Below, one piece after another: positions 19,067 to 35,837 of a stretch of 64,000 nucleotides of DNA; position 1 is the first letter of the stretch; each line of letters opens with the position of its first letter. Both the position numbers and the translations under genes were made by a program. The notes under the pieces were generated by a model. It made no database searches and was not told the origin of the DNA. It was given only the letters and a program-made list of their open reading frames with translations. The stretch is from Stenocarpella maydis (taxonomy: Eukaryota; Ascomycota; Sordariomycetes; Diaporthales; Diaporthaceae): the NCBI GenBank assembly GCA_002270565.1, contig NQMI01000025.1, positions 62,001-126,000 of the forward strand. Direction: 5' to 3'.

Positions 19067-19846
19067 ATGGCTACACCTGTCATCGCACCCCCCAAGGCGG
19101 TGGGCTCATCGCCGCTACCCACAATTGGGGACGACAAACCCGACAAGGGTGCGCGACTGGGGCCGGCTGCGAAGTCCAGCACCGCGCTAAAGGAGGCGAC
19201 GGCCGATCGGCAGGACACCAGCGACAGCGACGACCAGGACCTCGAAACCGAAAAGAAACTCGAAGTTCAGGCTGACAAGGCCGGCAGCGACGATGGCCCT
19301 CTTGAAAGCGAGAAGGAACTTGAGGTGCAGGCTGACACCAATGACAGATCACGCCCTCGCCCTCGCCCTCGCCCTCGCCCACTACCCATCCTAGTCCCAA
19401 GGCCACAGCCACCGCCTGCTCCTGGTGCTGCCCCCAATGGGACCAAGCGTGTGGTACCTACGAAGCCCAGGCCTGCAGCTTCTACCAAACATGGCGCCGA
19501 CAACACAGAGACCACGGGCAAAGATGCGGAGAAGCAGCAGAGAGGCGCCCATGATGCTGCAACCACTAAGCCAGCAGATGCCGGATCGGAAACGGCTGCC
19601 GCAGATGCAGTCGCGGACCACAAGTCATGCCTACCGTTCCGCCGCAATAAAAAGGGTCCCCGCAAGGAAGCCTGCAAGGGTGGGAAGCAGAAAGTGAAGG
19701 GTGCTCTTGGCAAGGCCTGTGAGAAGGTGAGACTGATACATAAACCCCAGGACATGCCTGACAGGGCAGCCCACTTCTTTGGTTTCTCGAATCCATCCAC
19801 GATCCCGCAAGACCGCTTTGATCATCACATCGAGGAAAGGGGCTAG
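19067..19846 (+). CDS. Hypothetical low-complexity protein with RP repeats
   Basis: Chosen start is the ATG at 19067 in a strong context (AACCATGG), giving 259 residues; the frame is open further upstream without a better start. Not recognised as any family. Visible parts: an acidic region with two related units (LETEKKLEVQAD and LESEKELEVQAD), an Arg-Pro dipeptide repeat (RPRPRPRPRPLP) encoded by a 6-bp DNA repeat, a Pro-rich tract, an Ala/Thr-rich middle and a basic, Lys-rich C-terminal region ending FGFSNPSTIPQDRFDHHIEERG. No signal peptide or membrane segment. Composition suggests a disordered, lineage-restricted protein; it could also be a chance frame, since it is intronless and compositionally biased. 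Confidence 0.5.
   Translation: MATPVIAPPKAVGSSPLPTIGDDKPDKGARLGPAAKSSTALKEATADRQDTSDSDDQDLETEKKLEVQADKAGSDDGPLESEKELEVQADTNDRSRPRPRPRPRPLPILVPRPQPPPAPGAAPNGTKRVVPTKPRPAASTKHGADNTETTGKDAEKQQRGAHDAATTKPADAGSETAAADAVADHKSCLPFRRNKKGPRKEACKGGKQKVKGALGKACEKVRLIHKPQDMPDRAAHFFGFSNPSTIPQDRFDHHIEERG
19352..19380. repeat. Hexanucleotide repeat CGCCCT, nearly 5 units
   Basis: In-frame expansion encoding the alternating Arg-Pro run of the orphan protein; length variation between strains would change the protein by two residues per unit. Confidence 0.85.
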
Positions 19847-20543
19847 AGGCCCGATCCTAAAGGCCAGCGCCTAAATGTCCCAGATGCCACCCTGCGTGTC
19901 ATGCCCGTCCGTCAGATCAGGTCCCCAATGGGGGCTGTGGTTGGACGTACTACGCCCTATCCCTAACTATGGAAAGCGCAGCTCGCATGTTGCGGAGGAC
20001 CCAGCCTTCCACGTATACGCAACGCCCCGGCATGTGGCAATCTTGTTACGAGGGGGCGGTCGGGATCCTGGATCTGCATGGACGGCATCTGACGGCCTGG
20101 CTGGCTGGTTCCCAAGCCCACTACAGAGCGATGAAGATGCCCAGCCAGTGCTAGTCATTGGTGCGAGGCCGCTACAGGCTAATTACAGTCTCCCTATACC
20201 TCGCACAAGGCCGTCCCACCCGCCGTGCCTGACAACTGTTTTAGCATTTTGAGAGGAGCATTAGAGCATTGAAACCCTCCCACTTCAGGCCTCTGTGATC
20301 CCCACCACCTATTCCTATTTATCCCTGTCAACCCGTTCGAAACACGCCTCGGTCTCAACACCCTTTCGTCCCCTTTTCCAGTCCCCATATCAGAATAAAG
20401 GACACTGTCGATAGTCGGTCGACGTGCTCTCTTCCCTCGCATCTCTTCTGTTTCAACTCTTCTGTTTCAACCTGTCATTTGCACCACAATCAGTGTTCGT
20501 TACAACAACAGGGCTTCTAAATTGACCACGGACACAGCTCAGG
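19847..20543. other. Sec9 upstream region with a 14-bp tandem duplication
   Basis: A perfect tandem duplication of CTCTTCTGTTTCAA occupies 20443-20470, about 75 bp before the Sec9 ATG, in a pyrimidine-rich leader. No other gene is seen. Confidence 0.6.
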
Positions 20544-22346
20544 ATGGGGCTTTTCAGCAAGAAGAAGAAGGAGCCCGTCGTGGAGAACCCCTACGCCAAC
20601 CCCGTAACGCCCTATCAACAGGCACGGAATGACCTCCATCAACAGAAGATAGGCGGATCGCCCGGGGGGCTTCCCTCGAACCCGCGCATGAACTCGTTCG
20701 CCTCCAGCACCGGACCTCCGCCCTACCAGAGCCCGGCCTCGACATACAAGAGCCCGTCGATGGCGAGTGACAGCAGTCGGTTCGGAGATGACAAGTTCGG
20801 CAACCAGAACGGATACGGATCGAACCGTTACGACACCAACGCTTCAGCCTTCAATGCCAACCAGACTCGCCCTGGCGGATACGGCGGGTTTGGGGATGAT
20901 GCCGGGACCAACGAACTGTTCGGCGGTGCCTCTAGTCGCTATGCGCCTCCTCAACAGGGAGCGAATGGATCTCCCTCCCTGATATCCCCCCAAAACGGGG
21001 CTTCCCCTTTTCAGACCCCTGCGAGCCAATACGATGACCCCTCGAAGGGTGCCTTGCTCGGCAGTGCTAGAGACCGATATGATCCTCTGCCTCCTGCCTC
21101 AAGACAAGACGCACCAGGAGATAATGAATATGGTGAATATGGTGCGCCTCGCGAGTTGACCGGTAAGCATGACGGCGTACTCTGGCAGGGTAGTCTCATT
21201 CACTTACACGACACAGAGGAAGAGAGGGATAGGGAAGAGGCCCGAAACATCAATGCCCAGGCCAGGCAAATCAGAAAGGAGGGCTTGGCCTCGCTCCAGC
21301 GCTCGAAAGATCTGATGCACCAGACCTTGGACGTTGCAGCGCAGACAGCAGCTCGTCTAGGAGAGCAAGACAACCGGCTTGCAAACACGTAGGCATTATC
21401 CTTTCCTCCCACGGAGGATGAATTTGCTGTCAAATTAACAGCTACTAACTGTGAGTGCGCAGGGAGCGAAACATGGATGCAGCATTGATCCATGCTCGTG
21501 AAGGAGAGAGGGGTGCCAAGTAAGTTTGACGCTTCATTTTTGCATTATTCGATATCCAGGGGATATTCTGAATCAAAGAGAGAATCTCCAGCTGTCAATA
21601 CTGGATATGAGCAACCAGCTAACGTCTTTTAGGGAGCTCGACCATATCAACAGCAGCATGTTCTCCGGCATGTTTGGGCCCTCGAAGAAAGCAATAAGCA
21701 AGAAGGATGCCAGAACACTAGCAGAGTACAAACAAGACAAGGAGCGGGCCGAGCAAACAGCAAAATCAACCTATGAATCCGAGCGACAGATGGAAGACAT
21801 GTTTAAAGATATGACTAGTAGCAAACCAAAGCTGCTGGGACAGAACCGAAATGGCGCCGAGAAAAGCAAGTTTTTGTATGAAGACGACACCGATGATGAA
21901 GAGGAGAAGGCGTTGAGAAAAGAAGATGCCAATGACGAAGAGCAGATCGACAACGATTTAGATGAGCTGGGGGATCTGGTGGGCAGACTGAAAGGTGCTG
22001 CCATTGGTCAAGGCCAGAATCTCACGACCCAGAATGCTCGCCTAGACAGGCTGAAGGAGAAGGTGAGTTCGCTTAGCACCAGACTTTACCATTTGATTAC
22101 ATCCACTAACATCGGAATGCAGACTGATCTCGTGGACGATCGTGTAAGTCCCCCCCTTGCACGCAAAGATTCCGGCCAGTTCTACCTGCTTGGGTCTGAG
22201 CCTTTGGACACCTAGAGGCGCTCTGGATTTCGACTACAGCTTCTACTCTTTGCGCCTTGCCATTCGACTTCGTGTTGGTTGTCTCCCGCTAACTTCATAT
22301 CTTCCAGGTCCGGATGAACCGCGAGAGGTTGAACCGCATCCGCTAA
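20544..22346 (+). CDS. sec9: Sec9 t-SNARE (SNAP-25 family, Qb/Qc)
   Basis: Six exons (20544-21162, 21217-21388, 21463-21519, 21633-22062, 22123-22143, 22308-22346) join in frame to 445 residues. The start MGLFSKKKKEP is the standard fungal Sec9 N-terminus. A Pro/Ser/Gly/Asn-rich region covers about residues 10-205. The first SNARE helix follows (EEERDREEARNINAQARQIRKEG… to LANTERNMD), then a linker, then the second helix (EQIDNDLDELGDLVGRLKG…NLTTQNARLDRLKEKTDLVDDR), ending RMNRERLNRIR. Sec9 pairs with Sso/Snc SNAREs in exocytosis at the plasma membrane and is essential. Intron 1 is 54 bp, stop-free and a multiple of three, so retention would add 18 residues just before the first helix. Neighbouring patatin-NLR genes make this a candidate guarded allorecognition protein, as known for Neurospora sec-9. 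Confidence 0.95.
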
Positions 22347-23541
22347 ATACACCAAATACCGAACGTCACTGCAATTTAGCATGCACATTGCGGTATCCTG
22401 CTTCGGAACCGTGGTATTTTGTGGATCCAGTCTTGCCCAGTCGTTTCTCTGAGCGATGCCAGAATTCGTGGCTACTTGATGGGAATCCTGATTGTAGGTT
22501 TCAACTGCACAAGAAAGTGTACAAGGGTATGCATGCATGGTAGAGCGGACGACGAGTTAAGATGGGTGAATGAGAATGTGTCACAACTAGTACACACCTG
22601 GGTAATCCAAGAAGAGAGGTTGTTTTCAGGGCCTTTCTTTTTTTAACTCTGTTCATACGCAGGGTCTGCTCGCAGACTCGGACAAATACAATATGTTGCA
22701 GATTGTCTAATCCGACCCTTCGGGACATGCTCAGGACATGTGAGATACTCGTGACAACGTGCTCCTCTTGTCGATGTTGAAACTGCCCACTGAAATATGG
22801 ACGTCTCAAGCAAGGCGACGGCATGTCTGCCCTAAGAGGAAAAGTGTGTTGGATATTCCAGATCTCCCAGCCACTTCATCCAGGACCAAGGCATCCAGTT
22901 TATGGTGCCTATATGAATGTGCTTGGATATCTTGGGCGCATCGGGCCTTGAGATGTGCAGTGACGGGAGTGGGCCTCGACAAAATTGAGATGTGGTCCAT
23001 TAAGCCAGCCACCTAGAATTGGGGCAGTACAGTACCTGCTGAGCATGGGCCCATTCCAGACGCTGGCATTGAAGGCAGGGCTCATGGGTCGCCAACATGT
23101 GGATTCTGGGCTTCAGCTTGTCAATGTATATTCTTATCGAACAAGGGTTAAGGGAAAGGAATATTGTAGACTTCCTTTTCAGTCCCGTCTTTTCTTTACT
23201 ATTCTTTTCTTCATACTTTACCCTTAAGGTTTCACTAGACGTATTTATTACCTAAAATTCAGTTCACAGAGCTAACTAATAGACTTAACACCAGTTTATT
23301 CTTTCTTACAAATCAGGCGGCTGTAAGGCGTGGGCGTGGGCGTGGATGCGGGCCAGCGTAATGGGCAGCCGCCGACCTCCTTACCTAAGCACCTGTGTGG
23401 CGTAGCCTGTGCTCGGCCCCAGACCCACATCGACATGGCTGACTTCGAATTTATCCACCAGCTCAGGAAATTCAGCGTCTAGCGAGTCCGCGCCTTACTC
23501 CTCGGTGTCATTTCAATCCACTGAGGGCTTTCAAGGTCGCT
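22347..23541. other. Intergenic region with an AT-rich tract
   Basis: About 1.2 kb with no supported gene. The part from ~23140 to 23325 is markedly AT-rich with many TA and TT steps, in contrast to the GC-rich flanks, and resembles a short RIP-degraded repeat relic. The DHR2 gene promoter must lie in the last few hundred bases. Confidence 0.5.
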
Positions 23542-25836
23542 ATGACGAAACGACGGAAAACAACCGATTCTGGTAACTTTATCAGAATCGGGGATAAGAC
23601 AATTTCATTAGAGGGTTATTTTGCCCCCAGCAAGCCAAAGGACGTCCAGAGCCAGGCCAACTCAGAGACCACATCGGGGCCAGATCTCACGAAGAAGGAA
23701 TCAGAAGGGAAAGAGCAGAATCTTCAGGCTGTGGGGAAAGGCGACAAGAAGAAGTCCAAGCCCAAGCCCGCGAGGATAGAAGCAGGAGACAAGGATCTTC
23801 TGCGAGTGCGGGAGAAGCTGCCCATTTGGAAGCACAAGGACGAAATTCGAGATGGCCTCAAAAACAACGACGTGCTCATCATCGCAGCAGAGACGGGCTC
23901 AGGAAAGAGTACTCAGGTCCCACAGTTCATCTTCACGGAAGAATGGTGTCGGAAAAGGACGGTCAAGGTACAGTCTGGAGACAACAGAGTCAACGATGCC
24001 TCAGTCGGGGGCGTCATTGCCATCACTCAACCACGACGGGTAGCTGCGACCACACTCGCCCACAGGGTCTCAAGCGAGGCAGGCACGCCCCTTCGACAGA
24101 CAAGTGGAGCTCGTGAGGGCTTGGTCGGTTATTCAGTACGGTTCGACCACAACGTTCCACGAGGAACCAGAATCAAGTTCCTCACGGAAGGTATGTTACT
24201 ACAAGAACTGCTTCGCGATCCCCACCTTCGACAGTACAGCGCCGTGATAGTGGATGAAATACATGAAAGAAGCGTCGACGTCGATTTGCTCTCCGGATTC
24301 CTCAAGCAGATTATCTCGGGGGACAAGGCCGGCCGCGGCGGCATCCCATTAAAGGTCGTGGTGATGAGTGCCACCGCGAACGTGGAAAAGATACAGTCTT
24401 TCTTTACGGTCGAGAAGGCCACCGGGACTGTGAAGCCAGCTACTCTCGAGATCCCAGGTCGCCTGTATCCGGTCGAGCTGATCCACACTCCGAAACCGGT
24501 ACCCGACATCCAAGACGCTCTGCTGAAGACCATCTTCAAGATACATACAGAGCAGCCGTGTCCGGGCGATATCCTTGCTTTCCTCACCGGCCAGGAGCAA
24601 ATCGAAACCGCCCAGAAAATCATCGACGACTACGCGAAAACGCTGGATTCGAAAGTCCCCAAACTCGTGCCAGTCCCGCTATTTGGCCAAATGTCAATCG
24701 AAGCGCAACAGAAGGCTTTCCAGCCAGTCAAAGGCAGGGTTGTGCGGAAGGTGGTTCTGGCCACCAATATTGCAGAGACCTCAGTCACTGTGCCAGGCGT
24801 CCGCTATGTTGTCGACACGGGGAAGGCAAAGGTCAAACAATTCCGTGTCCGCCTGGGGATGGAGTCCCTCTTGGCAAAACCCATCTCGAAATCATCCGCT
24901 ATACAGCGGGCTGGTCGGGCGGGAAGAGAGGCTGCAGGAAAATGCTACAGGCTTTACACGGAGGAAGGTTTCCAGTCACTCAAGGATGCGGACTTGCCAG
25001 AAATCCTACGGGTCGATGCGCTTGGTGCCGTTTTGACGATGAAATCTCGAGGTATCAGTGACATCTATGACTTCCCTCTCATGGATACGCCTGACGAGGA
25101 ATCGTTCGACAAAGCCTTGCTTCATTTGCATATATTGCGGGCCATCAATGATGATGGCTCGATCACCGAAATGGGTAAAAAGATGGCTTCTTTCCCAGTC
25201 ACGGCTCCGTACGGAAGGGTGCTCCTTGCAGCAGCAGACCCAAAGTACGACTGCCTCTTGGAGGCAGTCGACATTATTTCGTGTCTTACCGCAGGGGAAG
25301 ACATTTTCCACCAGCTACGCTCCGAGGAAGAACGAGAGCAAGTCGAAGAATACCGGAAGGAAGTCTATCGCAGAGAAGGCGATCTTCTCACCTACCTGAC
25401 GACAATCCAGCAATACACAGCGGAGAACACAGACAGGGCTGAGTGGTGCAAGCGCCGGAAGGTCAATATCAGGGTGATGCGGCAGGCTCTGAACATTCGG
25501 AAGCAGCTGCGGGGCCTCTGCCTCAAGGAAAAAATGCTGTCCGAGGCACCGGAGCCAGATCCTCAGCCTTTCAAGCCCATGTCCCCAGAGCGTGCCGAGT
25601 TACTGTTGAAATGTTTCTTGAAGGGGTTCTCGGTGAAGACGGCAATTCTCGCTCCCGACGCTAGTTACGTGACGACACAGGGCAAACATGTGGTGGCAAT
25701 ACACCCTTCCAGCGTCCTCCATGGCCAGAAGAAAGAGGCCATCGTGTTCCTTGAACATGTGTTCACGACGAAGAATTACGCCAAGAAGGTGAGCGTTGTG
25801 CAGTCGAACTGGATTTTGGAGGCTCTAGAGACATAG
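23542..25836 (+). CDS. dhr2: DEAH-box RNA helicase, DHR2/DHX33-like
   Basis: A single 764-codon exon. After a Lys-rich N-terminal ~90 residues comes the helicase core: motif I AETGSGKST (about 116-124), Ia ITQPRRVAA, II DEIHER, III SAT, the LTGQEQIE segment, V ATNIAETSVT and VI QRAGRAGR, then the HA2 and OB-fold regions typical of DEAH/RHA helicases. Yeast DHR2 acts in the nucleolus in 18S rRNA processing; an equivalent role is likely. It is transcribed away from Sec9 toward the NLR pair, and its stop is 295 bp from the end of the convergent NLR gene. It is thus a housekeeping gene embedded in the presumptive Sec9/NLR locus. No domain is missing. Confidence 0.9.
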   Translation: MTKRRKTTDSGNFIRIGDKTISLEGYFAPSKPKDVQSQANSETTSGPDLTKKESEGKEQNLQAVGKGDKKKSKPKPARIEAGDKDLLRVREKLPIWKHKDEIRDGLKNNDVLIIAAETGSGKSTQVPQFIFTEEWCRKRTVKVQSGDNRVNDASVGGVIAITQPRRVAATTLAHRVSSEAGTPLRQTSGAREGLVGYSVRFDHNVPRGTRIKFLTEGMLLQELLRDPHLRQYSAVIVDEIHERSVDVDLLSGFLKQIISGDKAGRGGIPLKVVVMSATANVEKIQSFFTVEKATGTVKPATLEIPGRLYPVELIHTPKPVPDIQDALLKTIFKIHTEQPCPGDILAFLTGQEQIETAQKIIDDYAKTLDSKVPKLVPVPLFGQMSIEAQQKAFQPVKGRVVRKVVLATNIAETSVTVPGVRYVVDTGKAKVKQFRVRLGMESLLAKPISKSSAIQRAGRAGREAAGKCYRLYTEEGFQSLKDADLPEILRVDALGAVLTMKSRGISDIYDFPLMDTPDEESFDKALLHLHILRAINDDGSITEMGKKMASFPVTAPYGRVLLAAADPKYDCLLEAVDIISCLTAGEDIFHQLRSEEEREQVEEYRKEVYRREGDLLTYLTTIQQYTAENTDRAEWCKRRKVNIRVMRQALNIRKQLRGLCLKEKMLSEAPEPDPQPFKPMSPERAELLLKCFLKGFSVKTAILAPDASYVTTQGKHVVAIHPSSVLHGQKKEAIVFLEHVFTTKNYAKKVSVVQSNWILEALET

Positions 25837-26131
25837 CATTGTTCACAAAATCGAGAATTCACACCCACAAAATAGAGGATACACATCTACAGTACATGGT
25901 ACAGGTGAAATTCAGACGCCCGCGCCCAACCAAGTCCCACACCCACAGTTCCCGCGCCTACGCCTAAATACTCTTAGCTGTGAACACGGGAGTAAGCCCT
26001 AGGCTCGGAATCGGACTCAGGTGTGTCATTGGTATGAAACTTGAGCCTGGTGCTTTTCTCTGGTAGATTGATAACAGCTTTGCTGCCTTGAGCGAATCCC
26101 CTGCGAGGTCCTACCGCAATCTTCACACGCC

Positions 26132-29100
26132 TCAATGCCATTGCAATGCATTCACCACGGCCTGCTGCCCAGTGTACTCTTTGATGGGATTCAACCGATA
26201 GAAGGGCAAGCCATCAACGTCATATTCCTTCATTTCCCACCCGTAAAGCGTCTCCCCACGGTCCAGACGCTCCCGCAACATGGCCTCCTCAGAGACCGGC
26301 TCCCATTCCCGCATCCACTGCGGCGCGAATTCTCCTAAAGCATCTTTATTTCTCTGGATCGCCTCATTTCTGATCCTGACCTGGACGTAGTCGGGAATTG
26401 TATTCTGGTAATACCGGAACTGGACCACGAGGTGGGCGGAGATCTGTGTCATACTATGTTCGGTGCCGAATGTGTGTTTGTTGCCATCCAAACAAACTTC
26501 AATGAGCGCGACTGCTTTTTCGTACTCGGCTTTACCAGCCCAGACCATTGCCAGATGGAACATACTGTCAAGGGTCTTAGGGTGGTATAATCCGAACAAT
26601 TCGTCGTATCTGGACAGTGTCGTTTCATAGAGTTCCCCTGCATCGTACAGCCGATTCTGCTTCAGGTACAATGAGCCCAGGTCAGCCATTGAGTCCATGT
26701 GTTCCAACGAGTCCTCTCCGTAGAGGTTCTTGCACCAGAAGCAAATCTCCCACAAGAGTGTCGCAGCCTCCTGAAGCCCGCCATCCCTTATGAGCACCGT
26801 AGCAAGTTCACTTTTCGCAGAGATGGTGGATTTGTGGACGGGTCCTAGCTCAGCCTCCTTTCTCTTAAGCTTTTCCGAAGCCTCCTGGATCGTCATTGGC
26901 AGACTTGCAGCGACTTCGTCCGAAAAAGGGGAGGCTCGAGCCCTCCTGGCCTTTTCTCGCCATTCGCGCGCCTTATTGTTATCCTTCCCATCCTTGGCCT
27001 CGGACCACGTCGCAAACTCATCGAAGATCTCCGCTGCTGGCGACCTGTTATCTGTTCGGGCCAGCACAGACGCCAATAATAATTTGTCTTTCCGGATATA
27101 CCGGTCGTCGAGAGGATTGAACGCATCAAGCGCAGCCTTCTGGTCCACTTCTTCGTCCGCGCTGGTCGCCTCTGCTCCATTCAAAGCCTCCCATAACTGG
27201 TCCTTGAGATATAATGTACGCCTGTCGATCGCTTCCAGCACCATCTCCTCTGCCTTGCTGAATTGAGCTTGAACATTGTACAGCTGTGCAAGCTTAGACA
27301 TTGCGAAGGCCGGGCCATCATGGAGAAGGCCGAAATACCTCTTCCTGTACTCCAGTGCCTTCAGCATCATCGTCACCGCAGCATCCAAGTTGGAAGCTTG
27401 TTCAAAAACAGCGGCCGCTTTGGACAGGTATTCACTCTCAAGAGCACAGTCCTCATGTTCGGCCTCAACATGCTTCAAGCAGGCTTCCATGTGGGGTAGA
27501 ATGTCGCGACGATAACGGGTGCCTTGAATATTATTCTCATGCTTGATCGAGTCCATGACAATGCTTTTCGCCGCAATTCCCCAGTGAGCCTTCTCGTCTC
27601 CGTCCATTCGGTTTCTCGCCCATTCATGAACGAGGATATGCATGTTGACGTAATCCATCGATATATCAAACTTGATGAGCGAGAACTCGTTGAGGAAGCC
27701 GAGGCCGCCGACGACATCATTGCATAGCCAGTCTATTCCATCGGGATGCTCCGGTGTGATTTCCGTCTCAGTGATGTCGACGAGACTCTCAAGGTTGACT
27801 TCGCCAGCCTTGAGAGGAAACGTCTCAGATCTCCCAAGTTTGTGGCGATTCAAAGCCGCCCGTTCAAAAATGATACCGACAACACCCTCATTGTGATAAA
27901 ATGAAAGCAAGTTGAGGAGCTTCAGCGCGTTCGAAGCATCCTCGACCCGAGCCATATCCTCTTTCTTGTCAGCGAAGGCTTTAATAGCTCTGTAAGAGAT
28001 ATTGAACGTGGCATAGACAGCAATATGTCGTTGCTCATCGCCTCCCTTGAAACGTGGATTTCTGAGCAGGGCTTCCTTCTGTTTGTTGAAGACTTCCAGG
28101 TACTTATTGAGCGGGCATGGAGCCATGTGAATGTAAGCCCCGGCCTGATCGATAGCCAATGGCAACAGACCCAACGCAGTGACAATAGACCTTGCCAATT
28201 CCCGGTTTTCGTCAGCATCTGTGGCTTTCTGTGCGGATCTGAGGAGTAGCAGTATGCCTTCGGGAGCATTCATGGTTTCGATGGTCGCCACGCAGTCTGG
28301 CCGCAGTCTTGGCTGCAGGTTGTGTTGTCTGCTGGTGTAGAGGATGTTGCCACGGTCTCCGGCGGGCAAGTACTTCGAAACGCTTGATGCCGGGACATTG
28401 TCAAGCACGAGAAGCCACTGTTCTTCACACTTATGCAGCCAGAGAAGAACTTCTTGCACCGGGTCCTTCTTCTCCTCCCCGTCGAATATGGCCGATGCTA
28501 TCTGCTTGTAGCTTTGCTCCGTAGTGACGGCGTCGGTCGCATCCACCCAAAAGATATGGAATCTTGCAGCGGTCAGCATTGTGGCTTTGAAAGATTGGGC
28601 GGAAACTTGCCTGTGTTCGTTCCTTTCTGTGAACTTCAAGGCGATCTGCGTCTTACCCACACCGCCCATGCCGCGGATGTGGAATTCCCTCCTAGACGTA
28701 TCACCAGGCTCGCGAGGCCCAAAGTGTTTGTCGAGCCTTTTCAGGATTGCTTCTCGACCTGTAAATATGTTGCTAGATTTACCCCTGCGAACAGCTCTCG
28801 GCTCTGCTGGTATGGTCGTCTCCTTGCTTAGACTACCTGTGAGATGGTCAGCCAAATCCATCTTGGTACCGTGGCGGCGATATCGATGAGGAAAGTCTTT
28901 ACTCACCACCGTGAGCAAGGTTCAAACCCGAGCTTTTGTTCTCGACCAAGACCTCGGCAAGGTCACCAATCATCTTCTTCACACTAGGGTTTTTTAAATA
29001 TCCCCAGGTCCTTTCTTTCAGCTCTCCTATCTTCTGCCAGTCCGAGAGCTCAATACCCTGGGCACCTCCGTCAACATTCAGACGGAAGTAAGTATTTTCG

Positions 29101-30001
29101 AACTCGACGAACTTGGCCTGCCATCTCAGGTGATCTTTCTCCGAGTCGGTGCCGAGCTCTTTCATCAGCTTGGCTGCACTGATGAGGTATTTGGCCTTCT
29201 CCATCAACTTCTTTCCCTTGGACGCCATTTCAACTGTGCGAGACCCCGTGCCGAGGCTGACGACACAGCCAAGCCTGCGTTTCTTGCCAAATAGGTTCAC
29301 AGCCTCTTCCCACAAGACAGAAATGGGGTTGTTGGTACCCAAGGCAGCATCAACGAATTCCTCCTCCTTACCCTCCTCATCCTTGATGGTCATTGGTTTG
29401 AAAAAAGTCGGCGCTGCAGTCGTCGCTCGAGCCGCTTCGTATATGAGACAGTTCGGATGCTTATCACCTTCGACATCATATGTCCGAAGGCAGACCATCT
29501 CCTTATGCCTCTGAGCTGGCATGGTGCAGACGAAGGCATGGCCCTTTTCTTGGGCCGGACGCCTGTTGCGCATGACAGTGCCTTTCTTCTGCTCACGGAC
29601 GAGGTTCTTCACGGTCTCTTCGAGTGCCTTGGCCTGGTACTTCTCCACGAGGCTCCGCCGCCGCTTGGAGAAGATCTCGCTCGCGAAGTTGTCGTACGCC
29701 TTCAGTGCAGCCTCGGTGCTCATCTCCAGCCGGCCGAGCATGATGGCCACGAGGCTGAGGCCACCACTTCAGTCAGCTTGCCAGCGATGTTGGAGCGGGG
29801 TGGAAGCTGGACTGACCCTCCGGTGCTCGTGCCCCCAATGAGATGGAAATAATCACATGGCTTCGGAAGTTTATCGAGATTTCCCTTCTGCTGCACCTTC
29901 CTCATCACCTCGTCGAGTATGACAAGCTCCGAGACTCCCCTGATGCCGCCTCCGTCCAGTGACAGTAGGTTAACGGGCTCATTCTCACCCGAGGCTGCCA
30001 T
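26132..30001 (-). CDS. Patatin-NB-ARC-TPR NLR receptor, copy A (PLP-1/vic2 type)
   Basis: Minus-strand exons 29817-30001, 28907-29754, 28611-28836 and 26132-28562 give 1229 residues. Patatin domain (~10-300): oxyanion loop DGGGIRG (16-22), nucleophile elbow GTSTG with Ser59, and Asp197 in DAALGTNNP. NB-ARC (~370-735): P-loop GMGGVGKT (~400-407), Walker B WLLVLDN, YTSRQ, LGLLPLAIDQ and the MHD-like MHILVHEW (~727-734). The rest is helical with degenerate TPR-type units (HPKTLDSMFHLAMVW). Intron 3 (48 bp) uses a GC donor; the equivalent intron in copy B has GT. Relatives in Neurospora (plp-1) and Cryphonectria (vic2) sense Sec9 variants and trigger cell death; here Sec9 is 3.8 kb away. The catalytic Asp motif is DAA where DGG/DGA is usual. 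The chosen ATG gives MAASGENEPVN, matching copy B's MADTFHTEPVN. Confidence 0.92.
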
Positions 30002-30159
30002 CGCCAACCATGCAAAAAGACAGCGGGACTAAATCATGACAACATTAGATTCAAACAACCCTGAGGGGTTTGATCATAAACTTCAGGAGAGACAGCAGTA
30101 CCACTCACCGGAATAAGGTCAGAACTGGGACACCTGCGATACTCATTGCAGGGAGGCTG

Positions 30160-30278
30160 GGTTGTCCTAATGCAACGCAAATATGCAGCCCCCATTGGCT
30201 GTGGGCCCGGTCGTGCATAATTGGGCTGCCTGGAGGGCCTATCGTATGCAGCATCCCGAGCCTGTTGGCTGTGGGCCC
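30160..30278. repeat. ~119-bp repeat upstream of NLR copy A
   Basis: Nearly identical to 35125-35243, about 160 bp upstream of copy A's ATG. By eye the differences are two single-base indels and a few substitutions. A ~37-bp sub-unit starting TTGGCTGTGGGCCCG recurs inside (near 30197 and 30265). Confidence 0.85.
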
Positions 30279-30329
30279 GTCGTGCATATTGGGCTGCCTG
30301 GCCTCCCTTTGTTTTTTCTTGGCTTATAT

Positions 30330-30665
30330 GCACGGGCCAACTTGCTAAGAATTACTATAGGAGTCTATCTATACCCCTAACAGGCACCCAACTTCAACAA
30401 GCTTTTCCTGCGTTGTCTTTATCACCTCTACCAACACCATACCGCGACTTCACCATCTCGCTACTTCAACCTCCCCTATCACAGCCAATTAGAATGCACC
30501 TCTTAAGGAAGAACTTCCCCTAAATAGCCCCTTTAAGAGGTCTAATGTAAGGGTTATAAGTATAAGCAGGGTAAATAAGTATATAGAGCAGCTAAGTAGC
30601 AAAGTAATAGCATTAAAGTAGTATATTTATAATAATAAATATAACTAAACTGGCCCCTTACGGGC
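30330..30665. repeat. AT-rich RIP-like relic between the NLR genes
   Basis: Strings such as AAGTATATAGAGC and ATAATAATAAATATAAC, dense TA dinucleotides and loss of CG fit C-to-T decay of a former repeat. The parent element cannot be identified by eye. Confidence 0.5.
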
Positions 30666-30772
30666 CCCATGGCGTAAAACATGATCCATCCATCCATCCG
30701 TGGTGCAGTACAGCTCAGCGAATCAAAAGTCACCGGGGCCGGATGGTATCGGCAAAGCGTTGGGATTGCCAG

Positions 30773-33700
30773 TCACGGGGTATGCCTCTTCAACTCTATA
30801 GCAAGGGACTCTCGTTCCTCTTGTGGATGACCCTTCCACCACCCATCTCTGGCAATACACGCAACTTCGGCGGGCACAACATCTAGTAGACTTTGTTCTG
30901 GAACAAAAGCTGCCTCGTCAAGTTGTCGCCATACCTCTGTGGTCCCGGTGTCAACAGGGACATCCTCTTGGGCGAAGTGGACCTCTGTGCCATCCGCTGT
31001 CAACATTGGCTCAACAGGCACTGGCTCCCACGCCGAAAGCCAGGGCGGTGCTGTGATGTACGCATCTTCTTCTGCCAGTGCGATCTTCGTTCTCAGCAAA
31101 GCTTCTTGCACCCATCGTAGCCTGTGGAAAAGCGGTATGGTCGCGCATACCGACCTCCAGTCTTGAAGCTGTCTTGCAGCATATCTCGTTCGAGGATCTT
31201 CGTCCCCGAGCTTCTCTTTTTGTAATTTGTAAAATTCTTCGCCCATATCAATGGCGGCTTCAAACATGCCTGCATAGAAGAACGAGCGTGCCAACTCACT
31301 CACGCTGTCCAGGGTTTTGGGATGGTGTGGTCCGAACTTTTCTTCAAACTTCAGCATCACGTCAGATAACAACCATATCGCCTCCCACGGCCGCCGCTGA
31401 CGCCGGAAGTTGTATCCCACTTCGAAAGCACTGTCCAAGGCTTCTGTTGACGTCGCTCCGTGTGTCTCGACGCTCCAGCTCTGCAACATGAAGAGATGAT
31501 GCTCGGCCTCCTTCCACATTCCTTCGTTCTGGAGACAGAGCGCGAGAACCTTCTGACACAAGATCGTCTGGTTGTGATCTGGGCCGAGAGCTTCTTTGGC
31601 TTCCAGGTACAACCTGTTGGCTTCCGGTAGTTTGACCAGCGATGGCTTCTGGCCCTTAATTGCCGCCTCCACCTCTCGAGCCTTTATAACCCATTTATCT
31701 TCTTCGTCTCCAGTGTCAGTCTTAGAGAAGCGCCTGGACCATCCTAGGACATCCGAGGAATGCTTCTCCGCAGCTTCGAAATTGCCACGTTTTCGATACA
31801 GTTGAGCCAGTGACACCTTGGCTTTCCTGAGCTGCGAGGAATCGAGAGCTTCTTTCGGTCTCACTTCTGCATCTACTCGTGGAGGCTTGGACCCAGACTC
31901 TCGTTTGAGTTTCTCCTGAGTTGCTCGCCAGCGCTTCTCGTCCTCCATTATCATTAGCCGGTCGATTGTTTCGAGATACAGCGCTTCCGCCTCATTGTCT
32001 CGGCCGAGAGTTACATAATAATCGGCTGCGTCGAGGATCGTCTGTAAGGTGAACTCGTCGAGATAGCCCAATGCTGCAGCGGCGCACCTGATTGACCTCA
32101 AATAGGCTCTCTCAGCTCCAGGTCGATCTGCCTCCGCATAAAGTACTGCAATCTTGTGCAGGTGTTTGCTCTCGAGCTTGAGGTCGGATTCGTAGTCCCG
32201 GACGTACTTCATGCAGGCATCAACATGCGGTAGCATTTGGCGACGATGCATGAAGATCTCAGTGGAGTCGGCTTCGGGAAGTGAATCTATGAGAATGCGT
32301 CGAGCCGCCAGCCCCCACTCAGCCCTCTGTTTAGGGCCCATCCGTCCTCGAGCCCACTCATGGATCAAGACGTGCATGTTGCTGTATAATTTGCTGTAGT
32401 CATATTTCACCAGTGAGAATTCTTCCAGAAATGCAATCCCAAGGTCGAAGCTTTGTGATTCCCAATCGAACTTGTGCTCCTCCCCTTCCATGTGGTGTAG
32501 CATCTGTACGAAGTGATCAAGCGACACTCCCTCTGCCTGCAGAGGGCGGCGCGGCGGTAACTTTTGATGAGCTTCCACACATAGCGTCATTGCGGCACAG
32601 TTGAACATAGCTCCCATTGAACCTTCGTTGTGATAGAAGCAGAGTAGATGGAGAAGTTGGAGGGCGTAGGTGGCCTCTGGGGCTCGCTCAATGTCCCTCC
32701 GCTTGTCCGCAAACGCTTTGATAGCCTCGTAAGAGATGTTGAAAGTCGCATACACAGGCAAATTGCGAAGATGGTCCTCGCCTCTGTATTTCGGATTTCT
32801 GAGGAGTGAATCTTTTTGCTCATTGAATTTCTCCATGAACTTCGTGATGGGACACTTGTCCATATGGATATCTGAGAGATTTTGTCAGCATCCAGGATCG
32901 GCAGGGGGACTAGAAGGACGCATTTCCAGCCCTGTCCAGACAACGCGGCAAATACTTGCTGGAAATTTTCGACTTACAAGCACCGGCTTGGTCAAGAGCC
33001 AAAGGTAGGAACCCGAGTTCTTTCGCTATGTGCCTTGCGATGTCCCTGTTTTCAACAGTGTCGGTGGTCATTCTTGCCGATCGGAGCAATAGTGTCGTCG
33101 CTTCTCCAACCTCCATTTCGTTGACATTTATTCGGCAGTCTGGGAAGATGCGCCTTTCCAGGTTCCTTTGGCGACTGGTGTAGATGATATTCCCCCTGCT
33201 ACCATCTGGTATGTAGTGAGCTAGGCCATTACCCGGGGCGTTGTCAAAAACAAGAAGCCACATATCACTTGTCTCCAGCATCTCCAGTATCTTCTGGACT
33301 GCCTCGGGGCCCTGCTGATCTGTCGGGAGCAGCCTCTGAGCAATGCGTAGATAACTCTGCTTGATAGTCACCGAGTCCGTGGCATCGACCCAGAATATCT
33401 TTAGACTAAGTAAGGTGTGTGAGTCTGATTGCATGGTTCCATTAACGAAACGGTGGATACTGCGTACCTATTTCGTTCGCATTCCTCAGCAAACTTGAGT
33501 GCAATCTGTGTTTTGCCTACACCGCCCATCCCCCAAAGGTGATACTCCTTACGAGGCCTATCAGCGGAGTCATTGCGCAGGAAATATGTCCTGAGTCTCT
33601 TCAGGATGGCTTCTCGGCCCGTGAAGATAGTGCTAGCCATGCCCCTAGGCTTAGCTGCCTGCGTTTCTCGAATGACGACATCTTTATCAAGGCCACCTAT

Positions 33701-34941
33701 TCATGTTGGTCAGCAATATTGCATACGACGTTTTTATTGTGGTTCAGCTTACCCAGGTGCCCAATGTTTAGTCCATGTGGGTTTCCGTTTACGAGAGCCT
33801 CCGCGAGGTCTTCGATGCTTGTTTTCACCTCGGGTCTTTGAAGATAGGCTCTTGTTCTTTCCTTCAGCTCGTCTATTTTTTCCCACTGGTCGAGGCTGAT
33901 TCCCTCTGCCCCCCTGGAAATATTGCTGTCAGAAAATGATGGATTCCCAGTATTATGAGGAAGATAGAGATAGGTAGATAGGATGACTGTGATCACCAGA
34001 TGACTTACCCGTCGACGTCAAAACGAAAGTAAACCCCGGGGAAATTCTTGAACATCTTGACCATATTCTCGTGGTCTCTTTGGGTGTCTGTGGTGATCTC
34101 CTTCATGACTTTGAGCAAACCTATCATCTCCTTGCCTTTCTTCCATATCCCCTTGCCAGGTTGAACAAGTTCTGCGGTACGAGACCCTGTCCCCAGGCTC
34201 ACAACACATCCGAGCCGCCGACGGGTGCCGTAGAGTGAGATGGCCTCTTCCGGCAGCAAAGTGACGGGATTGTTGCGCCCGAAAGCCGCATCCGCAAATA
34301 TCTGCTCGTGGCCTTGATCATCTTTGAGGGTCATTGGCCGGAAGAACGTTGTGGCCGCGGTAGTAGCCCTTGCTGCCTCATAGATCAAGCAACTTGAGTA
34401 CTTGTCGTTGTCCACATCATAGGTACGCAGCCTCACCGTTGTTTTGTGATCTTTCAACGGCATAGTACATATGAAAGCCCGGCCCTTCGCATAATGAGGA
34501 CGAGAGTCTCGCAAGAGGGACCCCTTCCCGTGGTCCTGAACTAGCCTCTGGACAGATTGCTCCAGGGCCTTTGCGCAATATTTCTCTGTAGGGTTGAATC
34601 TGCTCTTGTTTTTCTTGGAGAAGATCTCGCTAGCAAAGGCGTCGTACGCATCAAGAGCTTGTTCGGTGCTCATCTCAAGTCGGCCAAGCATTATGGCAAC
34701 GAGCCCTCCGGTGCTCGTGCCCGCCAGAAGATGGAAAAAATCGCATGGTTTTGGGACGGTGGCCAGGTTGCCCTTCTCTTGTACCTTTCTCATCACCTCA
34801 TCCAGGATGACAAGCTCTGATACGCCCCGGATACCGCCGCCATCTATCCTTATGTCAGCGTCGATGTCAGTTGGCGTTGCCTTGCACAGACTCACCACAT
34901 GCCAAGAGGTTCACGGGCTCTGTGTGGAATGTGTCCGCCAT
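30773..34941 (-). CDS. Patatin-NB-ARC-TPR NLR receptor, copy B
   Basis: Six minus-strand exons (34896-34941, 34009-34843, 33753-33913, 33468-33696, 32978-33405, 30773-32871) join in frame to 1265 residues. Patatin motifs: DGGGIRG (16-22), GTSTG with Ser59, Asp about residue 200 in DAAFGRNNP. NB-ARC: GMGGVGKT (~404-411), Walker B WLLVFDN, YTSRQRNLER, LGFLPLALDQ, MHVLIHEWARGR. The C-terminal half is helical with TPR-like units (HHPKTLDSVSELARSF). It resembles copy A most in the patatin domain and least in the C-terminal half. Two introns match copy A in place and phase (after the patatin domain and after the P-loop helix); three are unique, and copy A's intron in the nucleophile elbow is absent. 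The first intron splits the glycine loop codon for Asp16. Likely role: sensor of Sec9 or another partner in allorecognition (inferred). Confidence 0.9.
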
Positions 34942-35837
34942 TGCCCAAATACAGCAAAAGAAAAACCATGGGAAACGGGCTATATGGAGAGATCTACAAT
35001 CCACCCTCAAATGTGGGAGGGAGGTTGTCCATGGGCAAGGACAAACCCAGCATCTCATGTTGGGGCGCCCGAGATACTTATTCGGCCTGGAACCTGGCTG
35101 GAGGGCCGGAAGACCCAGCGACACGGTTGTCCTAATGCAACGCAAATATGCAGCCCCCATTGGCTGTGGGCCCGTCGTGCATATTGGGCTGCCTGGAGGG
35201 CCTATCGCATGCAGCATCCCGAGCCTGTTGGCTGCGGCCCGTGGTGCGGCACAGCTCAGCAGAGGATTCCGGGCGAATGGGCTGCCCCTGCTCGCGTGGA
35301 GCAGCCCATGCCACGACGGCGCAGGCATCTGCGACACTGCCACAACATGTTCAGCAATCCTGTGTTTGCTCCCTGCAGTCGTGAGACGATATTGCGAACC
35401 AGGGGGACAGGGGCTTGGCAGTGAAAAGAGACATGTTCTGAAGACAATTGAAGGGGCCAGTGTGAGACCAGTCAGTTATAGGATACCTACCTGCGCGAGG
35501 CGGTGTAAAATACGCGAAGACTACGATATCAACTAATCCCCGCCGGCGGTGGAGTTGTGGGGCCCACGGTCGCGCGCTTATTATGAACTGGGGGCAAACA
35601 TACGCAAGGTCTATGACAGCTCCAGCATGTGGTGTAAAGCACCATCTTTCCTAGCACCGAAGAGGGAGGTCAGATAAACGATTTTCCAAGCTCCTATCGA
35701 GTCTTCACACCCAGAAGCTGTGGTTGAAACAGGAGCGGTAGAGCGGGTCGGCTCGCCTCTCTTTCTCATCTGGCTCCTCTTTCTCTCTCTCACTCTCTTA
35801 TACACCCACCCAATCCCCCCCCCCCACCAAAGGAGCC
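34942..35837. other. Divergent region between NLR copy B and SDHAF3
   Basis: Holds the copy-B upstream repeat (35125-35243) and, nearer SDHAF3, a strongly pyrimidine-rich core-promoter-like stretch (about 35755-35805). Open frames on both strands here are chance. Confidence 0.6.
35125..35243. repeat. ~119-bp repeat upstream of NLR copy B
   Basis: Counterpart of 30160-30278, beginning GGTTGTCCTAATGCAACGCA, about 185 bp upstream of copy B's ATG and in the same orientation relative to the gene. Confidence 0.85.

What the first reader, a model, noticed from the sequence alone, without database searches (positions are those of the whole stretch)
20544..34941. Sec9 SNARE linked to two tandem patatin-NB-ARC-TPR receptors: a candidate allorecognition/cell-death locus
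Seen: an intact Sec9 gene and, 3.8 kb on, two complete patatin-NLR genes in tandem. Known: in Neurospora the linked pair sec-9/plp-1, and in Cryphonectria vic2, a patatin-NB-ARC-TPR protein detects non-self Sec9 after cell fusion and triggers death. Inferred: this locus is a duplicated version, with two receptors possibly detecting different Sec9 alleles or dividing sensor and executor roles. A DEAH helicase gene sits inside the block.
Basis: partly seen in the sequence, partly recalled or inferred. Interest (0 to 1): 0.92.

Follow-up and report, generated by a model that had tools for sequence, protein, structure and literature searches.

The report
Fungal self-recognition locus with twin receptors
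This stretch of a Diaporthe-like fungal genome carries a membrane-fusion protein next to two death-receptor genes, the kind of gene set that fungi use to kill fused cells of foreign strains, and its recognition surfaces are the parts that vary most between related fungi.

Summary
The window (best named match of each of the three proteins: Diaporthe) holds an intact Sec9 SNARE gene, a DEAH helicase, and two intact patatin-NB-ARC-TPR genes in tandem (PLR1 26132-30001, PLR2 30773-34941, minus strand). Sec9 may start further upstream, at 19067.

The type is known: sec-9/plp-1 of Neurospora, vic2 of Cryphonectria; PLR1 falls in a clade with Vic2. Two tandem receptors are not new either: N. crassa plp-1 and plp-2 carry consecutive tags.

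New support: among nine Diaporthe-type Sec9s the disordered N half is conserved (median 77% identity) while the SNARE half is hypervariable (41%), in two deep classes that cut across species; zero-layer glutamines are invariant. In the receptors the TPRs diverge far more than patatin and NB-ARC, most at groove positions.

PLR1 and PLR2 are no recent duplicate: their split predates Diaporthe, Cytospora and Cryphonectria. Yet they share a 126-bp upstream block, 95% identical, found at no third place in the genome. Both keep catalytic and P-loop motifs, against a sensor/executor split.

Not testable here: alleles within a species, binding, death. Most novel open reading: two anciently balanced receptor haplotypes joined on one chromosome.

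The parts
20544..22346 (+). Sec9 (SNAP-25 family Qbc SNARE), 463-aa form; exons 20544-21388, 21463-21519, 21633-22062, 22123-22143, 22308-22346; zero-layer Q275 and Q434
19067..19726 (+). probable upstream exon of a longer Sec9 (685 aa), intron 19727-20537; homologous extension in six annotated Diaporthe/Cytospora Sec9 models
   Evidence: splicing not shown experimentally
23542..25836 (+). DEAH-box RNA helicase, single exon, 764 aa; probably a bystander
26132..30001 (-). PLR1, patatin-NB-ARC-TPR receptor, 1229 aa; exons 29817-30001, 28907-29754, 28611-28836, 26132-28562
30160..30285 (-). block upstream of PLR1, 95% identical to 35125-35247; the genome search found these two places only
30773..34941 (-). 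PLR2, patatin-NB-ARC-TPR receptor, 1265 aa; exons 34896-34941, 34009-34843, 33753-33913, 33468-33696, 32978-33405, 30773-32871
35125..35247 (-). block upstream of PLR2, partner of 30160-30285

Best explanation
This is the vic2 / sec-9-plp-1 type heterokaryon-incompatibility locus of a Diaporthe species. Sec9 is a t-SNARE (essential in Neurospora) whose SNARE half exists in divergent classes. A linked patatin-NB-ARC-TPR receptor tolerates the Sec9 of its own haplotype; when hyphae of different individuals fuse, the TPR groove of the receptor binds the foreign Sec9 SNARE half, the NB-ARC domain switches and oligomerises, and the patatin phospholipase attacks membranes and kills the fused compartment. 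PLR1 is the receptor by descent from Vic2; PLR2 is an old sister receptor with the same parts and a different groove, most simply a second specificity on the same haplotype. Shown here: gene content, intactness, linkage, descent, and where the variation lies. Inferred from Neurospora and Cryphonectria: binding, oligomerisation, death. Inferred only from anatomy: that PLR2 also watches Sec9 (I would put that at about one in two).
For: Architecture and intact motifs. PLR1 in one clade with C. parasitica Vic2, SH-aLRT 100. In nine Diaporthe-type Sec9s the SNARE half is less conserved than the N half in 35 of 36 pairs, median 41% against 77%; 26 of 36 lie below the lowest of 271 control pairs with an N-half identity in the same range. 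D. citri and D. vaccinii share 91% of the N half and 41% of the SNARE half, while D. citri and D. amygdali share 79% and 71%. Between classes identity falls from 89% (residues 201-225) to 34% (226-250). Zero-layer Q in 9 of 9 at both positions. The SNARE half rejects 3 of 3 groupings tried, among them the six-row clade of the N-half tree, p-AU 6e-6 to 1.3e-4. Receptor TPR identity is far below patatin and NB-ARC identity (PLR1 against D. eres 59 against 87 and 85), with the highest variation at groove positions 2,5,9,12,13 (1.83 bits against 1.15 for outer helix B, p 8e-4; PLR2 type 1.71 against 1.34, p 0.014). Sec9 and a patatin-NLR on contigs of equal length in 13 cases.
Against: No set of alleles from one species was available, so balancing selection in a population is untested. 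The N half rejected the class-I grouping only weakly (p 0.037 for five rows, 0.060 for four; three further N-half tests 0.12-0.19; 1 of 5 under 0.05). A lower SNARE than N identity, gaps ignored, is common elsewhere too: 177 of 253 Colletotrichum and 223 of 300 mixed pairs, with a much smaller gap. TPR helix A against helix B as wholes did not differ (p 0.136). SNARE layer positions were only slightly more conserved than the rest. Neurospora plp-2 did not react with sec-9. Linkage by equal contig length is a proxy.
Confidence: 0.8

Rival explanations
1. Only PLR1 watches Sec9. PLR2 is a linked relative, like Neurospora plp-2, with another ligand or an allelic partner of its own.
For: PLR1, not PLR2, falls with the protein named Vic2; a passage in PMC11138114 says plp-2 shows balancing selection but did not kill with sec-9.
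Against: PLR2 types also vary most in the TPR groove, though only five rows from three genera; a PLR2 type lies on a contig of the same length as Sec9 in Cytospora paraplurivora, with no PLR1 type of that species in the lists.
Confidence: 0.35
2. Guard system: the receptors watch Sec9 because parasites or mycoviruses attack exocytosis; Sec9 and receptors diverge in an arms race and death on fusion is a by-product.
For: Proposed in reviews (PMC12881547, PMC10197012 passages); much of the same divergence would follow.
Against: Sec9 classes that cut across species are expected of balancing selection more than of serial sweeps; no parasite ligand was looked for or is known to me.
Confidence: 0.2
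3. Sensor/helper pair as in plants: one receptor senses, the other executes.
For: Tandem, intact, and sharing a 126-bp upstream block that could co-regulate them.
Against: Both keep the patatin Ser and Asp motifs and the P-loop; same-strand tandem rather than head-to-head; 9 of 9 named Diaporthales records with a receptor show one type only (capped lists).
Confidence: 0.07
4. The divergence is an artefact of gene models or of relaxed constraint on Sec9.
For: Most comparison proteins are unreviewed predictions; several are fused or fragmentary.
Against: Sharp break at about residue 225, classes shared by several species, invariant zero layers; only one Sec9 locus in this genome.
Confidence: 0.04

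Closest known systems
Cryphonectria parasitica vic2/vic2a
   Same: Sec9-like gene with a patatin-NB-ARC-TPR gene (PMC10324583 passage); PLR1 in one clade with Vic2 G8H3Q2
   Different: Here two receptor types lie together; the C. parasitica entries found are a PLR1 type (Vic2) and, in strain EP155, a PLR2 type; whether those are alleles or neighbours could not be read (Choi 2012 not held)
Neurospora crassa sec-9/plp-1 (and plp-2)
   Same: SNARE plus patatin-NLR; two receptors with consecutive tags NCU09244/NCU09245; discrete haplotypes with trans-species polymorphism (PMC7159315 passage)
   Different: Sordariaceae receptors, N. crassa's included, form their own branch, so the two tandem pairs arose separately
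Podospora anserina het-Z and Botrytis cinerea Bcvic1/Bcvic2
   Same: NLR linked to a SNARE (passages)
   Different: Botrytis NLR is called NACHT-ankyrin in PMC11138114; the passages read mention no second patatin-NLR at either locus
Patatin-NLRs of Chaetomiaceae with consecutive tags (e.g. CHGG_00910/00911)
   Same: Two patatin-NLRs side by side by their tags
   Different: A separate duplication on the tree; linkage to Sec9 not checked

Membership tests
sec-9/plp-1 (vic2) allorecognition system | Sec9/SNAP-25 type Qbc SNARE | tested here: met
   profile match to yeast Sec9 E 1.6e-40; both zero-layer Q
sec-9/plp-1 (vic2) allorecognition system | patatin-NB-ARC-TPR receptor | tested here: met
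   both receptors; TPR superhelix predicted for PLR1, mean pLDDT 82.4
sec-9/plp-1 (vic2) allorecognition system | close linkage of the two | tested here: met
   3.8 kb apart
sec-9/plp-1 (vic2) allorecognition system | intact patatin catalytic motifs and P-loop | tested here: met
   GTSTG, DAALG/DAAFG, GMGGVGKT in both
sec-9/plp-1 (vic2) allorecognition system | descent: receptor groups with one known to act | tested here: met
   PLR1 with Vic2 G8H3Q2, SH-aLRT 100; PLR2 is in the sister clade
sec-9/plp-1 (vic2) allorecognition system | Sec9 in divergent classes shared between species | tested here: met
   between species only; the tree conflict is carried by the SNARE half, the N half is weak
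sec-9/plp-1 (vic2) allorecognition system | polymorphism and balancing selection within the species | not testable with these tools
   no population data; two Cytospora mali entries share 89% of the N half and 69% of the SNARE half
sec-9/plp-1 (vic2) allorecognition system | receptor binds foreign Sec9 and death follows fusion | not testable with these tools
   needs experiment
PLR2 as a second Sec9 receptor | reacts with a foreign Sec9 | not testable with these tools
   groove variation seen; N. crassa plp-2 precedent negative
plant-type sensor/helper NLR pair | head-to-head genes, one partner without executor function | tested here: not met
   same strand in tandem, both with intact motifs

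The most novel reading that the evidence does not exclude
PLR1 and PLR2 are two ancient alternative haplotypes of one vic2-like locus, kept apart by balancing selection since before Diaporthe, Cytospora and Cryphonectria split, and in this genome an unequal crossover within their shared upstream block put both on one chromosome, giving a strain with two receptor specificities. For it: 9 of 9 named Diaporthales records with a receptor in the hit lists show only one type (five PLR1, four PLR2), D. eres and C. parasitica each show both types in separate records, and the only repeats of 30 bases or more outside the coding regions of the two genes are the pieces of one upstream block, found at no third place in the genome. 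Against it: the lists show 120 of 541 and 120 of 513 hits, hold 90% clusters and skip off-length gene models, so a second copy may be hidden (several Diaporthe with a listed Sec9, such as D. citri and D. helianthi, have no listed receptor at all); gene conversion would also explain the block.
Probability: 0.2. Interest if true: 0.78.

Novelty: new member of a known kind. Interest (0 to 1): 0.55.

Why it matters
Sec9 serves exocytosis, and its SNARE bundle should be its most constrained part; here it is the most variable, while the disordered half stays put. That is a clear footprint of recognition acting on a core machine, and it gives a ready set of Sec9 classes and receptor grooves for testing what an NLR reads on a SNARE. 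'Mutual aversion' of mycelia was reported in Diaporthe perniciosa in 1923 (title in the reference list of PMC10197012); this locus is a molecular candidate in that genus. The two receptor lineages would test whether receptor paralogues can arise from fused haplotypes.

Tried and rejected
Recent local duplication of the receptors: rejected, 46% protein identity and a split older than the genera compared. Reading the N. crassa, Chaetomiaceae and Diaporthales receptor pairs as one ancestral duplication: not supported by the tree. A sensor/executor pair: disfavoured. The helicase as a component: no evidence found. The upstream block as a mobile element: only two places found (that search skips simple repeats and very common words), whereas the stretch next to it (30286-30772) holds an AT-rich repeat with 37 other places. 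TPR helix A against helix B as a whole: no significant difference (p 0.136); the groove test was run after that, with repeat registers set by hand from the A20/A27 and L7/A8 pattern for six of seven repeats, the seventh dropped because its register was unsure; shifting the register by one to three gave 0.63-1.44 against 1.83. Layer against non-layer positions of the SNARE helices: only a small difference. Papers and searches looked at for vic2 alleles did not say whether the two C. parasitica receptors are alleles. Sec9 rows: of 120 listed I used 60 (8 Diaporthe-type, 4 Cytospora, 23 Colletotrichum, 25 others, picked by hand); left out among the nearest hits were the fragments P0160, P0163, P0169, P0171, P0172, P0176, and P0168, P0170, and C. 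parasitica Vic2a P0213, whose model lacks its end. Heller 2018, Choi 2012 and Milgroom 2018 are not held; what I say of them comes from passages in other papers or is recalled (sec-9 next to plp-1 in N. crassa by tag number, and D. perniciosa as a synonym of D. eres, are recalled).
Full report
WHAT IS THERE. The window is part of an unnamed 53.5-Mb fungal assembly in 312 contigs. The best named relative of each of the three proteins is a Diaporthe protein (PLR2: D. eres 78%; PLR1: D. eres 76%; Sec9: D. citri 65%), so I take the organism to be a Diaporthe. Sec9 lies at 20544-22346 (+) in five exons with GT-AG introns and no internal stop. PLR1 (26132-30001, -) and PLR2 (30773-34941, -) follow 3.8 kb on, in tandem on the other strand, both open after removal of introns, both with Patatin, NB-ARC and TPR matches above Pfam's cut-offs. 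Between Sec9 and PLR1 sits a one-exon DEAH helicase. Among the neighbours scanned are a GTP_EFTU-type GTPase and, further out, a Vezatin-domain protein, a WD40/PRP4 protein and a protein kinase.

Sec9 matched nowhere else in the genome (3 of 3 matches lie here). For PLR1, PLR2 is by far the closest relative in the genome: 380 bits for its best piece, against 95 bits for the best piece elsewhere, among 38 matching pieces.

RECEPTOR INTEGRITY. Both receptors keep the loop DGGGIRG, the nucleophile motif GTSTG, the Asp motif (DAALG/DAAFG), the P-loop GMGGVGKT, Walker B, GLPLA-like and MH-xx-H motifs. Neither looks like a decoy or a disarmed sensor.

DESCENT. A quick maximum-likelihood tree of 54 receptors (window's two plus 52 chosen from the 151 listed) puts all Diaporthales receptors used in one clade (SH-aLRT 100), split into a PLR2 clade (5 rows: window, D. 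eres SLS63, Cytospora chrysosperma, C. paraplurivora, C. parasitica EP155) and a PLR1 clade (19 rows: window, D. eres LA080, two D. amygdali, C. mali, Coniella, C. parasitica Vic2, twelve unnamed), both at 100. So the split is older than Diaporthe, Cytospora and Cryphonectria. Two N. crassa proteins with one tag prefix pair with each other (94) inside a Sordariaceae group, and CHGG_00910 and 00911 fall in two sister-level sub-clades of Chaetomiaceae rows, all outside the Diaporthales clade, so tandem pairs arose more than once. That N. crassa plp-1 and plp-2 are NCU09244 and NCU09245 is from passages of PMC8982394. The two D. amygdali PLR1s are not sisters.

SEC9 DIVERSITY. I compared nine Diaporthe-type Sec9s (window, D. 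citri, D. amygdali, D. vaccinii, D. australafricana, D. sp. PMI_573, D. helianthi, two unnamed). N half (1-223): median 77%, range 67-91. SNARE half (224-463): median 41%, range 34-87; lower in 35 of 36 pairs. Of the 1128 pairs of 48 other Sec9s (23 Colletotrichum, 25 of mixed genera), 271 have an N-half identity of 67-91; their SNARE halves have a median of 75% and a minimum of 54%; 26 of 36 Diaporthe pairs lie below that minimum. Fairness: SNARE below N half is frequent in controls too, 177 of 253 Colletotrichum and 223 of 300 mixed pairs, but by little (medians 73 against 80 and 46 against 51); Colletotrichum may itself carry such a locus. Gapped columns were ignored, which flatters the N half everywhere.

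The SNARE half forms two classes: I (window, D. citri, D. amygdali, one unnamed, more loosely D. australafricana) and II (D. vaccinii, PMI_573, one unnamed, more loosely D. helianthi). D. citri and D. vaccinii: 91% N half, 41% SNARE half. Over the 12 pairs between the seven core rows, identity is 72-89% in 25-residue bins up to residue 225, no lower than within classes, then drops to 34% in 226-250 and stays at 30-47% until 450. Trees of the halves disagree: the SNARE half rejects D. citri with D. vaccinii (p-AU 6e-6), the six-row clade of the N-half tree (8e-5) and a third set (1.3e-4), 3 of 3; the N half rejects class I with five rows (0.037) but not with four (0.060), nor class II (0.19, 0.18), nor three class-I rows (0.12), so 1 of 5. 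The N half has few informative columns. Zero-layer glutamines Q275 and Q434 are kept in 9 of 9; layers +1, +4, +8 of the first helix and -3, +4 to +7 of the second are also invariant in the nine: the SNARE still has to work.

RECEPTOR DIVERSITY. PLR1 against D. eres: patatin 87, NB-ARC 85, TPR 59%. The two D. amygdali assemblies: 92, 82, 52 (the J7T55 model lacks the P-loop stretch). PLR2 against D. eres: NB-ARC 86, TPR 67 (that model lacks most of the patatin domain; 82% over what is left). PLR1 against PLR2: 67, 52, 24. A model of PLR1 675-1229 from 19 rows (mean pLDDT 82.4, pTM 0.78) is a TPR superhelix; its best PDB hits are LGN and kinesin-light-chain TPRs, with low overall TM-scores. Positions 2, 5, 9, 12, 13, 33 and 34 of a TPR are the most variable ones in the family and lie on the concave face (PMC1261162 passages). 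In 16 PLR1s (window, three named Diaporthe, twelve unnamed of the same clade) positions 2, 5, 9, 12, 13 of six repeats have a mean entropy of 1.83 bits (n 30), outer helix-B positions 1.15 (n 42), structural ones 0.77 (n 42); p 8e-4 for groove over outer; moving the register by one to three gives 0.63-1.44. In five PLR2 types from three genera: 1.71, 1.34, 1.06; p 0.014. PLR1 and PLR2 of the window differ at 28 of 30 groove positions, 32 of 42 outer and 25 of 42 structural ones.

SHARED UPSTREAM BLOCK. A 126-bp stretch 159-284 bp upstream of the PLR1 start is 95% identical to one 184-306 bp upstream of the PLR2 start, and the genome search found these two places only. PLR1's copy carries an extra 37-base piece of the same block beside it; beyond that the flanks gave one 22-base match and chance-level ones. 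Such likeness next to 46%-identical proteins suggests recent exchange: gene conversion, or an unequal crossover between two haplotypes with homologous upstream sequence. Shared control of both genes is a further possibility.

LINKAGE ELSEWHERE. Sec9 and a patatin-NLR lie on contigs of the same length in 13 cases among the 34 Sec9 and 41 receptor rows keyed in: D. amygdali, two Cytospora, two unnamed contigs of 41 and 43 kb, Pleurostoma, five Colletotrichum, two Coniochaeta. In D. amygdali the tags are N8I77_004175 and 004177, leaving room for one gene between, as here. Reviews speak of independent or convergent emergence of SNARE-NLR pairs (PMC12881547, PMC10890737 passages); for patatin-NLRs of Sordariomycetes this spread hints at older linkage, which I did not test further.

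VERDICT. A new member of a known kind, with unusually clean evidence of where recognition acts and an old two-receptor make-up. Two searches with Diaporthe among the terms (20 of 20 listed, 20 of 41 listed) showed no title about such a locus in Diaporthe; the library lacks the key subscription papers, so I make no claim that it is unpublished.

Noticed in passing
19067-20537 (+): Conserved upstream exon suggests a 685-aa Sec9 with an extra N-terminal region (SCLPFR...GPRK motif) in Diaporthe and Cytospora; it may be the main form or a second isoform.
   Followed up: partly
30531-30660 approximately: AT-rich stretch (GC 0.31 in 30501-30660) matching 37 other genome places at 72-86% identity: a small dispersed repeat, possibly decayed, between the two receptors.
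   Followed up: partly
28563-28610 (-): GC-AG intron of 48 nt in PLR1 that is also readable in frame, so retention would add 16 residues after the P-loop.
   Followed up: partly
P0005 and P0008 (D. amygdali N8I77 and J7T55): Two assemblies under one species name have PLR1s with 52% TPR identity that are not sisters on the tree: an allele pair or cryptic species.
   Followed up: no
G000 contigs C145, C3, C298, C67, C78, C92, C248, C218: Further patatin or NB-ARC/TPR gene pieces, some with stops in the reading frame (introns or decay not resolved).
   Followed up: no
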